The notes under the pieces were generated by a model, which worked only from the letters and a program-made list of their open reading frames with translations, was not told the origin of the DNA and did no database searches. The translations under genes were made by a program, and so were the position numbers. A stretch of 64,000 nt of DNA, taken from NCBI GenBank assembly GCA_003640385.1, contig RCAB01000032.1:186001-250000 (forward strand). Reading direction: 5' to 3'. Shown here one piece after another: positions 2,787 to 60,700 of this stretch. Source of the stretch: Setaria digitata (lineage: Eukaryota; Nematoda; Chromadorea; Rhabditida; Setariidae). Within the stretch, counting starts at the first letter, position 1. Every line of letters starts with the position of its first letter.

Positions 2787-8237
<5,451 letters not shown>

Positions 8238-17300: not shown

Positions 17301-20300
17301 GACATCGCTACGGAGTTTCTAGTGTTTAAGAAAGTCAGCCTTGGAAATAGCACTGTTGATTGCTTCATCTTGATTCGCTGTCGTTCAACTCAATTACTGA
17401 CTGATAAATTTTTCTCTTTGGTTTCAAAAGTCTCAATTCCTGAACGATTTCCGCAATAATGGCGATTTTTGCAGAAACTATTACAAAAAAGAAATTCCAT
17501 AATTACCATAATTATTAAAGTTTTATTCCACTACAGTATTATGCCTCTTGCTTTATGTATTATATATATAGCTTGTACAGAGAAAGAAAATTGAGATAAT
17601 GAAGTAGCAAAAGTAATGTGTAATTAAAATTAAACCTTTTTGACTTGGCAAATTATTTTCGTGTATTTTAGAAGCAGGCACACAAAAATTTCGGTTTTTA
17701 CATAGTTTATAAGAAATCATTAATAGAAGTTTAAGGAGCTTTCAATCGACTTGACCATTTTTCACGGGGCTTTTAAGTGGTCAGTAACTACTTCAAGCTC
17801 TAGTTTCTCACTAGCTGACATTTAAGTAAATAGACGTTAAACTGAATGTTTAGGATGGAGTCATCTAATATTCAAGATGGTCGTACCATAAATTGAAATA
17901 TAGCAAATGACAATGCATTTCAGATGTTCACTCAAAGTAGCGGAAATTATATCCGTGAGGAGAGGATACATTTACCAAAACAGAAGCCAAAAGATTTTCT
18001 TGGACAGGTTATTATTTAAATTTTTAGGGGTATGGAGAAAATTAAGTTCTCGGTAGCCTTAGGACTCTTCTAAAGTAAACAAAAACTGTTGAATTTTCGA
18101 AAAATTGAAACAGCAAAGTAGTCAATGTTTCAGTTCAGTAAGCATCATCTTATCTTTGCTATTTTTTTCTTTCAAATTATTAGTCGATCTTCAACTATAA
18201 CCTTCATACTGAAAAGATCTAAATTGGAATTTCAGAATTTTCGATGATTTGGAATCAATGACAATGTTAAAAATTGATTTTATTAGATTTTGTCATCCAT
18301 TTATCTATTTTTTTTTTTTTTTTTAAGTTTTATGTCATATGTACCTAAGGTCACAACCCGAAAAAAGTCCACAAGTCACTTTTTTGTATTTCCAGGCCAA
18401 ATTTTATTACGATAAATATAATTTACGGCATGTAGCACCATTTGTCTTATTGATAATTTATTCGCTACTGGGCGCTTCGTTGTTCTGTTGGGTGGAACAG
18501 GCGCATGAACAAGAACTTATCAAGTCCGTCTTTGGATGATAATCTTTCCATAATGCGCAATTAGACTTTTCATACCGTAATAATTGCAAACTCATCTGTA
18601 AATAGAGAAATCTTGTTTAGTTGGATAGTAATTTGCAACTTATTTTTGAAATCTATGCAGTAACAAAAGCAAATCTTCCAGAGGAACCATCAGTTAAATG
18701 CAGAATACTGTGACTATATATGAATGTATTCAGAGTGAAGGTGAATTGATTGACTTGACAATTGTCGAACATTTTAATTATTATAGCACAAATTTCTACC
18801 ACACAAAAATTTAAAATATTTGAATTTCGAGGTTTTTCAGGAAAGAAAGAATTATATTAGATGATTTGAGGAATGACACATTTCAACAGTTAAGGCGAGT
18901 TTTTCGGAGCAGAAATTCAGATATGAATAAAAATTTAGCTAATTCAAAGTAAGTAAATTTCATTTCATAAATTACTAACTTGATTCCTTCCAAAACTGTC
19001 AGCTGTTCTATGTCACTGATGAATTCTCGACGAAATTTACTATCTTCGTAGAACTATTGAAGCTTTTGTAAGAGAATATCTTATTCTTATAGAGAGCTTT
19101 ATTCTGACCTGTCAAATGAAATGACATCTGAAGTTGATAATATTTTATTATTTCGTACTATTTCGTGCGAGATATACTATATATTTCGTTTCAGAAAAAT
19201 ATTGTTATGGTATGAGGATCAATTAACAAAATTAAAAATGCCTGAAGGCTTAGAATGGGATATGTGGGGTGCTCTCTTTTATGTTGGCACTATTTTTACT
19301 ACTATCGGTAAGTCTGGTCTTACTGTCGCAATAGTCCTTAGAAAGCTCATATTCAATTTCATTCCCAATCCTCTTCAATTTCACTTTCCAGGTTACGGTA
19401 ATATAGCACCCCGAACACCGGGAGGAAAGGCATTAAGTATCGTGTACGCAATTTTCGGCATACCACTTGTGCTGGCTATACTAAGTCAGTTTGGCAAGAC
19501 ACTTACTACTTTTGTAAGCGATATTTGGATGAGGTAATTAATATTTTCTTCGTTGAACTGAATTGCTTTGTTACCGCACTGATAGTTTGTCCTAGGCTCA
19601 GTTATCAGTGCTTTATGTTTCAAGTCTTGTTTTCTATTACTTCATTTTATTCGATTGAATCATAGATGAGAATCATAAATCTTTTTTTTTTTTAATCTAT
19701 TTGTTAGCTGCTAAAAAACAAACCCAATAAATGATATCGAATTTTTTATCAAGTTAGTTAATAAGAAAGTTTTTTAAAATGGAACAGTTTTCCGATATTT
19801 TTCTGATATTAATATCATATTTTAAAATAATATTATGGGTTTGCGACTTGATCATAATGTTCTGTTTTTATATTAACAAATTAATTTGAATTTGCTTTAC
19901 AAATTTGAAGTTTACTAAAAATTTATTTATTGAAAACACTTATTTATTTATGACCGATGAATGGAGTATCAGATCAGTAAGCATTAATATTGTTTTTATC
20001 ATCAAAATTGCTACACCTATATCTTATATTACCAAATTTTATGAAATGTGAAAACACAAAGTTTTATGAAAAACTCTTATCAAGCTTTAAAAACAAAGAG
20101 TGATTTTTGAATTCAAATGATGAATATCTCGGGAAAGTGATGCAATCTTTAGATACTAATTGAGGTTTCTTCAAAAATTTTTAACGGAGCAAAGAACCTG
20201 AAAAGTTTATAACACTTAAAGAATGATGTTGTTATACTACCTTATTATTCAGACTTGTCATCCTTGCTATGTTTGAATAATAAATTGCATTGTTAAAACA

Positions 20301-35238: not shown

Positions 35239-36431
35239 TTAACTGATATGACGCAAAGTGTTGGGTAATGTTTGAAGAGAGTTCGAATCATCTTTGTAAA
35301 AATCATTATTATCTTCTTCCAACTGATGCTGTTGCCATTTTTCGTACGGAAATGGTCCAACTTTACCAATGCCAACATAATGTGCTGATGGAGGATTAAA
35401 TTCGGCAAAGTTTGGACCTACAATAATGTATAGGAGGAATATATCGACGAAGTGTTAATTACTTACTAAACTATTTCACCATGTTGAAAAATATACACTA
35501 TCGATTGACTGCTCCATCAAAGGTTCCGATCTAATTGTAGCATTTTTTCCAACAAAAAAAAATATATATATATATATATGTATAAAAATGCTATTAGGTA
35601 ACCTTTATTTTGTATGCCCTCTGGTAGAAATGATCTTTTATTGTAATATCCACCGATTCGACGTTTAATGTAAATTCCGCCGGGAAAAGGTATAAAACTT
35701 CTTTTCCCATACATTCCACCCATTAGAGGCATCAGCGCTAGAAAAAAGTTTGATGCATGAGTCAAAAAAAAAGAAAAAAAGTATCATCATGTTTAGATTT
35801 TTATGAATATATGAGGTTAAAAGAAGTGAATTACTTAGATCAATTTCTTTGATAATTTAAATAATTGAATCAATAAGTCGATGATTTCAACTTCATATTA
35901 TTTTATTTAATTAGTCTATCTTGCATATTTTGAAAAGTACAGAAATAATGAACGCATTATCTAACATAGCAATTTGTAAGACAGTAGGCTCATTTTTAAT
36001 TCAACGTAAAGCATTTGACACGTACCGTAATTTACCCGCTTGCCGTATAAATTGTTGGAAAGTAGTAATGAAGGTTCAGTTTTCTCAGTTTCGTCGAATT
36101 CATTTTGATTTTCCTTTTCAAGAACTGTCAAAAATAACTTTTGTCGTAAAAAGGTTATTGCATAAACTTGTTACCTAATATTACTCAATTTGCTATAAAA
36201 CGGCCAAGAAGCTATGTAATTGCAGATTTGGCTTTAGCACTTAAAAAAAAAAAATTTACTATGTATAAAATTCTTTGCCACTTGAAAAATCCCTGGTGAT
36301 GTAAAAAAGTTTGTCATAATTTAAGATTCAGATTAAATGCTGAAATGTATTATTGACTAACCTTCGTTTGCAGAAGCAATTTTGCTAATTACAATGATAT
36401 AAACTATAAATTCCGTCAAAATTGCAACCAT
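35239..36431 (-). CDS. Neuropeptide-like secreted precursor
   Basis: Three minus-strand exons join in phase, 36431-36362, 35737-35603 and 35417-35239, giving 127 residues. The N-terminus MVAILTEFIVYIIVISKIASA is a clear signal peptide. The second exon holds three dibasic KR sites: the first follows LMPLMGGMYG, where the Gly before KR predicts an amidated tyrosine; the second follows SFIPFPGGIYI; the third follows RIGGYYN. After the last KR comes SFLPEGIQNKGPNFAEFN and a longer spacer with VGIGKVGPFPYEKW and an acidic stretch. Two peptides share a GG(M/I)Y core and two begin with SF. This layout is that of a neuropeptide-like (NLP) precursor cleaved by proprotein convertase. I do not recognise the peptide family. 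The acceptor-like CATACAG lies just upstream of the ATG. Confidence 0.75.
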
Positions 36432-42048: not shown

Positions 42049-42214
42049 CAAAATACCATTCCTTCTAAACATAGAATTTTTTTTTTTTTTGTTTCTTTGA
42101 TGAGTTTAATGGTTTTTTCAGTCAGTCTAGAANAAAATACCATTCCTTCTAAACATAGAATTTTTTTTTTTTGTTTCTTTGATGAGTTTAATGGTTTTTT
42201 CAGTCAGTCTAGAA
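42049..42214 (+). repeat. Tandem direct repeat of about 83 bases split by an N
   Basis: The block starting AAATACCATTCCTTCTAAAC and ending CAGTCTAGAA occurs twice in a row, with a single N at 42133 between the copies. The copies are the same except for the length of a T run. The N exactly at the joint suggests that two contig ends with the same sequence were placed side by side, so the duplication is probably an assembly artefact. Confidence 0.85.
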
Positions 42215-42304
42215 AAATCGAATCAGCAATAACAAATCATAAATACTTTCTCTTACTAAGTTTTCTGCTCATTAAATTGGCCATAAAGAGAGTTTCAATC
42301 ATGT

Positions 42305-42377
42305 GGTCCAGTGGTGTAGTGGTTATCACATCTGCTTTACACGCAGAAGGTCGGCGGTTCGATCCCGCCCTGGATCA
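42305..42377 (+). tRNA. trnV-UAC: tRNA-Val (anticodon UAC)
   Basis: A complete cloverleaf can be folded. The acceptor stem pairs GGTCCAG with CTGGATC, followed by discriminator A. The D arm contains the A box (GTGTAGTGGTTATCAC). The anticodon stem TCTGC/GCAGA encloses the loop TTTACAC, with anticodon TAC at 42338-42340. The T arm GGCGG-TTCGATC-CCGCC forms the B box. There is no intron. The T runs needed for RNA polymerase III termination are not immediate; A-rich DNA follows from 42460. It stands alone in a gene-poor area. Confidence 0.95.
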
Positions 42378-43969
42378 CCTAGTGTATGGTGGAGATGCAA
42401 GGCTTTTGTATTTGGTCGTCCTCTCTCTCTGTGTCTGGTTTGCAGACTGAAAATGCGGGGAAAAAAAAAGGAAGGCAGAGAAAAAAACCTTCTGCCAACA
42501 ACGACGGTTTGTTTACTTATGATGCCGTCTGGCCTGTTAGAATCAGGTAGAGAGTTAGTACTTACTACTCTAATTATTGTGCATTATCTTTAATTTAATT
42601 AATTATTACCTTCGTACCTTTAATTACAACAATACTATTTTAATTGTAAAACAGAACTGTCATAGAATATACACCGGGCGGCTATTTCATCCCTCCAGGA
42701 AAATGGGAAAAAAAATGCCTGCACTTCAATCCTCATGTATGAAAACATCTAAAACACTTAAATTAACTCAATTTAATTTACCAAGTTTGCATGCAATCAG
42801 TGTAAAACGCTGCGAAGATGTTGCAAGGAAGTTTGTTAAATACTATTTGGAAGGAAATATTGTGCAGTAGCTGAATGTATTAACAGCAAATAATATTATG
42901 AAAAATGAGAGTGAGAGAGTTATCTCGAAGGACAAAATGCTGAAAAAATGCAACGGGAGAAATGAACAGTTCCAAAGTGTCAAAAAAGAAATGCGCTAGC
43001 AAGCTTATTTAATAGCCGGGTGAAAAGTTCGATTTGGAAAAGTGTTAGGCATACGGAATGATTTACGAAGAACACGGCATATCGGATTGCTTATTAAGAT
43101 GCCTGCAAAAATTTCAGAGATGCTGACAGATGTGAAATTTAGCAACGTTTAATGGTCTCATGTTATTAAATATACTGTATATAGACTCGGGAATGCTTTC
43201 TACGGAATTTACCTTTTTGGCAGAAAATTTTTATTTAATGTATAAATCCTCGTGATAACAGTTAGTTTTTTTTTCTTTTTTTGAATAGCTAAATATATTT
43301 TTTAATATGGATGAGACAGTCACCAAAATACAATCAATTTAATCTTCAGCAACACAAGAAGAAAGTGTAAACGTACAAGATTAACAGAAAGCAAGTGCTT
43401 ATGAATGAGAAAGACTCATAAAGAGTCAGATAAAGAGAGCTGGTAGCATAATAGATGAGGCCTGTTTTTCATTTGATAATTCATTAACAATAAAAAAAAA
43501 AAAGTTTTTTAGAAACAAAAATGTTTTATTTTCTTTACTGTTTTGATTAATTCTTTACCGTTCTGATTAAGAAGACCCAGAGAGAAAAACACGACTAAAT
43601 GATTTTTGAAAGTTACAACGAAATTATAAAGTTCGGCGTATTCAGCCAAGTAAATAACTTGATAATTTTATGAGAATATGAAATGAACAAAGAATGGAAA
43701 CCATAAACTTCTGTGGTCAAATCTATACAACTGATATATGATTATCCACAAAGTGCTTATAAAAAAAAATATATATATATACATATATATGCTTCGCTCA
43801 GTAGAATTTCCCACTAAATTTCGTTTTTAACTTAAAAAAAAAAAAAAAATCAAATTGGCAAATCATTTTGGACCGAATGTCAAAACACGTTCATCAAGCA
43901 TTAAGCTAAAAGGAAAAAATGGAAATTCTTTGTGAGTTAAAAGCACCTGCAAATTGCAGTGAGTAGATA
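42378..43969. other. Spacer downstream of tRNA-Val
   Basis: About 1.6 kb without a supported gene. An open frame at about 42577-42870 shows lysine-rich sequence without a domain. An (AT)-rich tract lies at 43769-43790. This stretch includes the 3' flank of the BED-finger gene. Confidence 0.4.
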
Positions 43970-57710: not shown

Positions 57711-60700
57711 TTAGTGAAGAATGATTTATAACTATTTCATTTGTTTGCAAGGCATCACAAAATGTACCATAGAAGTCAATAATTCATGAAAACGAAATCA
57801 TTAACCTCTAGCTGTTGTAGTGGGTGATGGCATATTTGAAATGATATTTTAGGTTAGAGCTAAATTTATGGGTCAAACAGTTAACACTACTTTGTTGATG
57901 AAAAAGCCAATTCGAGTTTTCTTCTAAACAAAAATAGTGGGATGTTATCAGATGTACTGATTATTTGAAAAACTGCCACAACTTTGTTGAAGAAATGTTT
58001 TCATACACTTGTTTGTTTTGCAGGTGATGAAGTTCTTGGCAGCATAGCGGTTGCCTGTTTCAACAATTTTGCGGTTATCGGCGTGTACTATGTAATCGAA
58101 GAGTATCGACATTCAGGTATCGGAAGCAAACTTTTCAAAGAAGCATTAAAAAATGTCAGTGGCAACCAAACAGTCATATTTCATTCAAGTAATTTTTACG
58201 TCGTTTTTTTTGTTTAAAAAAAAAAAAAAAAAAAAATAGTTAATGTGGATAGGGAAAATTTTGAAAGAAAATCAGTATAAAAAGACTGGTGGATATGTCA
58301 CGGATGTGAACTTGGTAACTTTGTGAATATAATAACGTCGAGTGAAAGTGTAACACACAGAGATTTGAGTTCAATTCATACTATTAAAAGTCCAGGACAA
58401 GATTCTATACTTATAATTTTATTACTCAAATGACATTGATCAAGTGACTAAATAATTTAGCATTTAAGTGATTAGATGAAACTTCTTTCTAATAACACCA
58501 CTTCAGATGTCTTTTATAATCTATATTTCATTTTTTTTTTATTTCTTTTCAATAATTTTCTAAAACAGTCGCCAGTATTGAGTATCGGTTAGTGATGTAC
58601 TTTGAATTTGTGCAGTATTTTTTCAAATTTTAAATGTTGAAATATGCTGCTCCGATGTTTTTTTACTCGCAACAATGATCGAATCGAGTTGTTTTAAAAA
58701 ACTGCTACTTGAAATATATGAGCTGAATAATCGAATCAATCAAAAATACTTTCTACCAAGTTTTGATAAGTTAAACAAGTTTTCAAGGCTTTAATTTCTG
58801 AAATTTTTTCCTCTTTTTCTTTTTTTTTTTTCTTTTAAATTAATAATTACTAAGCCTTTGTATTTCGTTATTCAGTGTCACATTTGGCTAGTAAATGCTG
58901 TCGTTTTGGTCTTGCAATTTCATTACAACAAAAGTGGAAATTTGTTACATATCAGATCAGCAACCCATCAGCTTTTCCCACTCTTCAGGTTTTGATAATT
59001 ATGTTTTATTGGTTTCTTCGACTATTACTACCAATTGATATCAAACAAATGTGATTATTATTCGACTCATGGAAAATGGAGATGAAATTTCCAGGAAAGA
59101 GAAGTTACAATTGTTAAATACAGTGATCTTTCGGAAGCCGAATTAGTGGCGTTGATGAGATATGATACTGACGTGGTACATCTGAATCGGAATCTCTGGT
59201 TGAGGGAATGGCTTCAACGAGAAAATCTCAATGTTTGTATTGCGTTTAAAGAGGTAAGTATTCTACGACTCATTTAGTTTCATTCAAATCTCGATTATTT
59301 ATACTCTGCTCCGTTTCTTCCTCATTTTCCTTTTCTTCTACTCAGCCACATGACCAGGCAAAGACAATTTTTCAGAATACAATCGTTGGGTACGGATGTT
59401 CGAGAGAGGTAGCTGGAGGCTATGTATTGCCTTTGTTGGTTGGACCGCTCTATGCCGATGATTTCAAGACCGCTAGTGCTCTACTTCACGCTTCCCTAGA
59501 GAAATACTACGTAACTGTTATTGTTATGCTTTGGAAGTCTATTAAATTCCAAGAAGAAATAAAGGACAAGAAAAATAACTGGTCGATAAAATTATCATTA
59601 TCGAAGCAGATACAGCTAAGGATTCCAGTATACTTTGGAACTCATTTTTTAGAAACCAGATGAAGATTACGATTGGGATCCAGATATTTTCGCAATATAT
59701 AGAAGGAATGTATATTTCATAGTACCGGAACAAAATACTCAAATGATAGCATTGATGGACAAATTTAGAGGAGAAGGAGGAATAGTTAGTAAAGATCGAT
59801 TATACTATATCGTAAGTGTTTCCTTTTTTCTTTATTAAATATATCATTGAAATTTCTGATCACTGTTAGCTAGGTTTTTAATGATGATTAGTGGGTAGAC
59901 TTGCTTTCTTTTCTCATCCTATATTTGATTGCTATAAACTATCAGTAAAAGAACTGTTATTAGAAACGATGATTTGAATAGAACTTACAAAGCTGCTTTG
60001 ATATTCAGCTAACTGAATGTTTTAATGAAAAGACATATTGCACTCTATCAAATAAATGAAATGTTGTTTTCTAGGGTCCTGTGTTTTTTCTAAATTATCA
60101 TTTAGTGCAATTCCGCTCATTAATTTTCTTAACTTCCCACCCTTGATAATTTTGCCTCTCTTAAATATTACAACTAACATGTTTTCAGTAACTTCCTTGA
60201 ATAAAAATTATTTTTGTTAGAAATGAAAGGGCACCTTCCTTTCTGAAAACATGAATTTTATACAGAAAGATGATTGATTTACCGAAGGAGTTACTGTTAC
60301 CGACAGCTCTCGACAAATGGCATTTTAGTACTGTAGACACACTTTTAAAGTGCTGGGTCAGAATGAAAGACAGAATGTTCTAAAGGCTACTCACCCACTA
60401 CTTATAGTTGGACTCCTTACTTTTTGATTTTTGGAAGTAGAGGGAGACAAAATAGGCAAAAGGTGACCTGTACTCTAACCTATACTCAACTGCTGTACTT
60501 TTATCAAACACAGCATTCTATTAATAAAAGTCCCAGGTGATATACGGAATATCCAAGATGCCACATCCAATTACACAGTTTATTAGTGAGTGACGTGAGA
60601 ATTATAAATGGTTAACACTTATTAAAAACCAATCTTCCAGAGAAGTTTGGAAAGTTATATATCAAGATAATTTTCAGACTCAGAGTACGCATAATTTGCC

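What the first reader, a model, noticed from the sequence alone, without database searches (positions are those of the whole stretch)
35239..36431. Neuropeptide-like precursor with GG(M/I)Y peptides of unknown family
A signal peptide, three KR cleavage sites, one amidation Gly (MGGMYG-KR) and a repeated GG(M/I)Y core are packed into 127 residues over three in-phase exons. The predicted peptides do not match any NLP, FLP or insulin family that I recall, so this could be an undescribed nematode peptide gene, possibly with a conserved receptor.
Basis: partly seen in the sequence, partly recalled or inferred. Interest (0 to 1): 0.75.

Follow-up and report, generated by a model that had tools for sequence, protein, structure and literature searches.

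The report
Roundworm NLP-10 neuropeptide gene, filarial version
This is the precursor gene for NLP-10, a neuropeptide that helps the laboratory worm C. elegans move faster when disturbed, here found in a parasitic-roundworm genome in an eroded form; it belongs to a known family rather than a new one.

Summary
The finding is real but already has a family. A four-exon minus-strand gene (36431-35239, 160 aa) encodes a neuropeptide precursor. Brugia pahangi and Wuchereria bancrofti have unnamed relatives (50% and 49% identity); in all three, NLYGKRVNYxLMPLMGGMYGKR is identical except at x.

A profile of these three, searched against 5.8 billion proteins (1327 word-matched candidates scored), returned at E<=10 the two filarial proteins and 19 others. 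All 19 carry P-x-x-GG-x-YG-K/R repeats: the nematode NLP-10 (GGMYamide) family, including C. elegans (E 2.3e-3) and hookworm (E 6.3e-13). C. elegans and hookworm NLP-10 as queries find only this locus in the 75.6-Mb assembly.

The less ordinary feature is repeat erosion: one unit keeps GGMY and the amidation Gly, SFIPFPGGIYI-KR has lost the Gly, and two units are more divergent. In C. elegans NLP-10 activates the Gq-coupled receptor NPR-35 and raises locomotion speed; that it does so here is inferred.

The parts
36362..36431 (-). Exon 1: start codon, hydrophobic signal-peptide-like N-terminus MVAILTEFIVYIIVISKIASANE (residues 1-23, codon 24 split)
   Evidence: GT donor, in phase; start MVAIL shared with B. 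pahangi; most hydrophobic stretch
36026..36124 (-).
   Evidence: AG/GT borders, 99 nt, in phase; NLYGKRVNY identical in B. pahangi and W. bancrofti
35603..35737 (-). Exon 3: ALMPLMGGMYG-KR, SFIPFPGGIYI-KR, RIGGYYN-KR and SFLPEGIQNK (residues 57-101, codon 102 split)
   Evidence: AG/GT borders, in phase; genome searches with NLP-10 proteins hit here only
35239..35417 (-). Exon 4: C-terminal spacer GPNFAEFNPPS...TLRHIS and stop
   Evidence: AG border, stop at 35239; partial conservation (FNP, KV, PY, QH, QLE) in 3 of 3 filarial sequences
36036..36068 (-). Unit 0: LLLSNNLYG-KR, predicted amidated; divergent repeat with NN (SN in B. pahangi) in place of GG
   Evidence: NLYGKR invariant in 3 of 3 filarial sequences; repeat score 4.2, random p 0.0002
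35700..35737 (-). Unit 1, exon-3 part: (VNY)ALMPLMGGMYG-KR, the one GGMYamide peptide; its first residues VNY lie at 36035-36026
   Evidence: Repeat score 29.6, best of 1525; identical except one residue in 3 of 3 filarial sequences
35661..35699 (-). Unit 2: SFIPFPGGIYI-KR, repeat core retained, Ile at the position of the amidation Gly
   Evidence: Repeat score 18.5, second of 1525; B. pahangi and W. bancrofti have DIYD-K here
35634..35660 (-). Unit 3: RIGGYYN-KR, degenerate repeat remnant
   Evidence: Repeat score -0.5, random p 0.0013; weak

Best explanation
A filarial-type nlp-10 gene. The precursor enters the secretory pathway, is cut at KR sites by a proprotein convertase, trimmed, and the Gly of GGMYG is converted to a C-terminal amide, giving VNYALMPLMGGMY-amide as the main product and possibly a peptide ending SNNLY-amide. 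By analogy with C. elegans, the GGMY-amide peptide is released from interneurons and activates an NPR-35-type Gq-coupled receptor to raise locomotor activity and sustain responses to noxious stimuli. Shown here: the exons, the family and a single locus in the assembly. Inferred from general knowledge of precursor processing: cleavage and amidation. Inferred by homology: receptor and behaviour (perhaps even odds as stated). SFIPFPGGIYI and RIGGYYN look like decaying repeat copies that can no longer be amidated.
For: The filarial profile retrieves, besides B. pahangi and W. bancrofti, 19 proteins at E<=10, and 19 of 19 carry P-x-x-GG-x-YG-K/R repeats: Parelaphostrongylus 3.1e-13, Ancylostoma 6.3e-13, C. 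elegans Neuropeptide-Like Protein 2.3e-3. In the reverse direction a query of four C. elegans peptides finds 34 proteins at E<=10, including one named CBR-NLP-10 (2.9e-9) and, weakly, W. bancrofti (E 0.28). Profile-profile comparison: probability 98%, pairwise E 1.6e-13 over 54 columns. One locus: hookworm and C. elegans proteins and a GGMYGK/R codon pattern each hit one place, here. Exon 2 and the GGMY peptide are conserved in B. pahangi and W. bancrofti. C. elegans NLP-10/NPR-35/Gq physiology: PMC11532408, passages read.
Against: Similarity to C. elegans is confined to the short repeats, so strict orthology rests on peptide family and uniqueness, not on synteny or a tree. The filarial profile used only three sequences, one of them the window's own; the window protein alone matched only the two filarial proteins at E<=0.001. 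The main unit has Met where 32 of 32 distinct intact family repeats have Ser or Asn. B. pahangi and W. bancrofti lack recognisable GG in units 2 and 3. No transcript, peptide or receptor data were seen. For the receptor there is only one exon that resembles neuropeptide FF receptors best, which does not identify npr-35.
Confidence: 0.93

Rival explanations
1. A separate filarial-specific neuropeptide gene whose GGMY motif arose by convergence with NLP-10.
For: Only short repeats are shared with C. elegans. Met replaces the Ser/Asn of the 32 distinct intact family repeats.
Against: Several family features coincide: Pro three residues before GG, GGMYG-KR, an IPFxGGxY second unit, tandem KR-bounded arrangement; 0 of 1,000,000 random 9-mers score as high as either of the two best units. 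No other NLP-10 candidate was found in the assembly. The profile's non-filarial hits are NLP-10 in 19 of 19 cases.
Confidence: 0.05
2. A glycine-rich secreted peptide with antimicrobial rather than signalling use.
For: One survey notes that NLP-10 and some other NLPs have been classed with glycine-rich secreted peptides (PMC10506718, one passage read).
Against: The most conserved stretch is the KR-bounded amidation site; the C. elegans relative is a receptor ligand (PMC11532408, passages read).
Confidence: 0.02

Closest known systems
NLP-10 (C. elegans nlp-10; GGMYamide family; P0018 here)
   Same: Hydrophobic N-terminus, dibasic-bounded short peptides, P-x-x-GG-M-Y-G before the dibasic site, tandem units
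   Different: C. elegans has four uniform PF(N/S)GGMYG units; here one intact GGMYG unit with an N-terminal extension (VNYALMPL), one unit without the amidation Gly and two divergent units
Unnamed B. pahangi (P0001) and W. bancrofti (P0002) proteins
   Same: Same architecture; NLYGKRVNYxLMPLMGGMYGKR identical except x
   Different: Unit 2 reads DIYD-K instead of GGIYI-KR; unit 3 not recognisable; the W. bancrofti model starts downstream and lacks the signal-peptide region
Strongylid NLP-10 (Ancylostoma P0007, Angiostrongylus P0008, Cooperia P0005)
   Same: Same repeat family; units without the amidation Gly also occur among intact ones (GSYDKR, GWHEKR in P0008)
   Different: Six, three and four intact GGxYG-K units respectively

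Membership tests
NLP-10 / GGMYamide neuropeptide precursors | At least one P-x-x-GG-x-Y-G followed by a dibasic site (motif taken from the sequences) | tested here: met
   MPLMGGMYG-KR; best of 1525 dibasic-preceded 9-mers in the window
NLP-10 / GGMYamide neuropeptide precursors | Several tandem dibasic-bounded copies of the unit | tested here: inconclusive
   Second copy IPFPGGIYI scores 18.5 but lacks the amidation Gly; two others weak. Tandem arrangement present, uniform copies absent
NLP-10 / GGMYamide neuropeptide precursors | Significant profile match to family members and to nothing else outside the filarial proteins | tested here: met
   19 of 19 non-filarial hits at E<=10 carry the repeat; 15 of the 19 are at E below 1e-3; hhalign probability 98%
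NLP-10 / GGMYamide neuropeptide precursors | Only NLP-10 locus in the genome | tested here: met
   one place each, all at this locus (assembly of 976 contigs, completeness unknown)
NLP-10 / GGMYamide neuropeptide precursors | Signal peptide | tested here: inconclusive
   Hydrophobic N-terminus ending KIASA-NE; no predictor available
NLP-10 / GGMYamide neuropeptide precursors | Activates NPR-35 | not testable with these tools
   Needs a receptor assay; npr-35 itself was not identified in this genome
NLP-10 / GGMYamide neuropeptide precursors | Gene neighbourhood or intron positions shared with C. elegans nlp-10 | not tested
   Only the window's own nematode genome was searched

The most novel reading that the evidence does not exclude
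In filarial worms the NLP-10 precursor is being cut down from a uniform array to a single GGMY-amide peptide with a conserved VNY-LMPL extension, while a neighbouring unit has turned into a separate, conserved NLY-amide peptide with a receptor preference of its own.
Probability: 0.2. Interest if true: 0.4.

Novelty: new member of a known kind. Interest (0 to 1): 0.2.

Why it matters
It gives a corrected gene model and a family name to an unnamed filarial neuropeptide gene, and predicts a specific ligand (VNYALMPLMGGMY-amide) for an NPR-35-type receptor in a group of parasites where neuropeptide receptors are studied as drug targets. It also shows repeat-by-repeat decay of a multi-copy neuropeptide precursor.

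Tried and rejected
Rejected: 'unknown family'. Pfam and NCBIfam have no matching family for the window protein (NCBIfam had none for P0001 and P0018 either), and the only PDB sequence match is chance-level (E 0.93).

Little or nothing gained: (a) Receptor search. 7tm_1 gives 88 matches in the genome, 30 of them as loci. My first script took 26 of the 30 loci but read the nine minus-strand ones on the wrong strand, so, in which 60 of 664 matches were shown and those 60 were aminergic receptors, is not a fair test. One search showed the error and read them correctly (35 segments from 26 of 30 loci; L008, L021, L023 and L036 left out). I then compared three exons, chosen by eye, with PDB chains: L011 matched neuromedin-B, melatonin and other receptors, L016 cholecystokinin receptors, and L012 neuropeptide FF receptor 2 best (E 2.1e-14), closely followed by cholecystokinin receptor A (8.8e-14). 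NPR-35 is reported to belong to the NPFF/SIFamide group, so L012 is a lead, not an identification. (b) Species: not identified. 'Filarial' rests on the two relatives found. (c) McKay et al. 2022 (PMC8764417; outline, sections 3.1, 3.3, 3.4 and passages seen): its Table 1 is held without its boxes, so I could not see whether nlp-10 was scored in B. malayi or D. immitis; nlp-10 is in neither its list of genes absent from all nine parasites nor its list of genes present in all nine. (d) Paper searches for GGMY spellings, GGMY in filarial papers and nlp-10 with Brugia: no description of a filarial nlp-10; in the three papers I read the nlp-10 passages. Of the 21 papers listed I opened five (PMC8764417, PMC8515059, PMC10506718, PMC4684371, PMC11943259). 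Subscription papers are not covered, supplements were not available, and older nematode NLP catalogues that I recall were not seen.

Rows dropped: the repeat matrix used 30 of 35 proteins (left out: P0001, P0002, P0033, P0034, P0035) and only units ending GG-x-YG (105 occurrences, 32 distinct). In one search, 17 of the 33 proteins new were aligned; one search printed 30 of those 33.

Full report
Observation. The minus strand at 36431-35239 carries a compact multi-exon gene. Inside the first intron there is a further exon, 36124-36026, with AG/GT borders and 99 nt in phase. With it the protein has 160 aa: MVAILTEFIVYIIVISKIASANE / VLEKENQNEFDETEKTEPSLLLSNNLYGKRVNY / ALMPLMGGMYGKRSFIPFPGGIYIKRRIGGYYNKRSFLPEGIQNK / GPNFAEFNPPS...TLRHIS (slashes mark exon borders to the nearest residue).

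Relatives. A search of 5.8 billion proteins (13 candidates scored) returned two matches at E<=0.001: an unnamed Brugia pahangi protein (2.7e-29, 50% identity over 95% of the query) and an unnamed Wuchereria bancrofti protein (5.4e-19, 49% over 68%). In the alignment of the three, NLYGKRVNYxLMPLMGGMYGKR is identical apart from x (A or V); exon 2 is therefore coding in relatives. The second and third reader-named units are not conserved: where the window has GGIYI-KR, the relatives have DIYD-K.

Family. A query made of four C. elegans NLP-10 peptides, recalled and afterwards confirmed in P0018, returned 34 proteins at E<=10 from 426 candidates. Among them are C. elegans 'Neuropeptide-Like Protein', C. 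briggsae 'CBR-NLP-10', several parasitic relatives such as Ancylostoma and Cooperia, Heterodera and, weakly (E 0.28), the W. bancrofti protein. In the other direction, the profile of the three filarial sequences returned 21 proteins at E<=10 from 1327 candidates: the two filarial ones and 19 others, all 19 with P-x-x-GG-x-YG-K/R repeats. The best non-filarial values are 3.1e-13 and 6.3e-13; C. elegans itself is at 2.3e-3. Candidates are pre-selected by shared five-residue words, so more distant families could be missed. Profile-profile comparison gives 98% probability and a pairwise E of 1.6e-13 over 54 columns. In the window's own 75.6-Mb assembly, hookworm NLP-10 (E 3.6e-5), C. elegans NLP-10 (E 0.002) and a GGMYGK/R codon pattern each hit one place, this gene.

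Repeat anatomy. Scored against 32 distinct intact NLP-10 repeats, the units read MPLMGGMYG (29.6), IPFPGGIYI (18.5), LLLSNNLYG (4.2) and KRRIGGYYN (-0.5). None of 1,000,000 random 9-mers reached either of the first two; random p for the others is 0.0002 and 0.0013. An unrelated 9-mer in the six-frame window scored 4.5, so the LLLSNNLYG value is not proof by itself; the matching units of the relatives score higher (LPLSSNLYG 12.1, FPLSNNLYG 9.1). I read the precursor as a four-unit array, as in C. elegans, in which one unit is intact, one has lost its amidation Gly and two have diverged. Units without the Gly also occur in Angiostrongylus (P0008).

How it works. Secretion, KR cleavage and Gly-directed amidation are inferred from the sequence and from general knowledge of neuropeptide processing. 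In C. elegans, NLP-10 acts through NPR-35, a receptor of the NPFF/SIFamide group. Each of three synthetic NLP-10 peptides activates it in oocytes, it couples to Gq, and the pair raises locomotion speed after interneuron activation, tapping or blue light (PMC11532408, passages read). NLP-10 also sustains responses to repeated noxious light (PMC12135013, passages read). npr-35 is reported as conserved in eight of ten key parasites (PMC8515059, one passage read); which eight was not seen. In this genome one GPCR exon (L012, G000:C552:17079-17330) resembles neuropeptide FF receptor 2 best among PDB chains (E 2.1e-14), with cholecystokinin receptor A close behind (8.8e-14). That is a lead only. An earlier, larger comparison was spoiled by my reading nine loci on the wrong strand, as one search showed.

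Verdict. A filarial-type nlp-10: a new member of a known kind, with an eroded repeat array. No description of a filarial nlp-10 was found in the searches, which cover only open-licence papers; the public protein entries are unnamed.

Noticed in passing
window 42305-42379 (+): A tRNA-Val gene (anticodon TAC by ARAGORN); Rfam also calls a tRNA at 42305-42377.
   Followed up: partly
window 42050-42217: An 82-base sequence occurs twice in tandem (96% matches) with a single N at 42133 at the junction, which looks like an assembly join that duplicated the contig ends.
   Followed up: partly
window 19061-19537 (+): Exon of an ion-channel gene, Pfam Ion_trans_2, possibly a two-pore potassium channel (the channel class is a guess).
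   Followed up: no
window 5599-6263 (+): Exons of an arginyl-tRNA-synthetase-type gene, Pfam tRNA-synt_1d.
   Followed up: no
window 57969-58217 and 59250-59663 (+): GNAT acetyltransferase-like exons.
   Followed up: no
P0002 (W. bancrofti): The public W. bancrofti protein starts with MQN inside the exon-2-encoded region and lacks the signal-peptide region, so its gene model is probably short at the 5' end.
   Followed up: no
L012 (G000:C552:17079-17330, minus strand): A GPCR exon of the same genome whose best PDB sequence match is neuropeptide FF receptor 2; a candidate for an NPFF/SIFamide-type receptor.
   Followed up: partly
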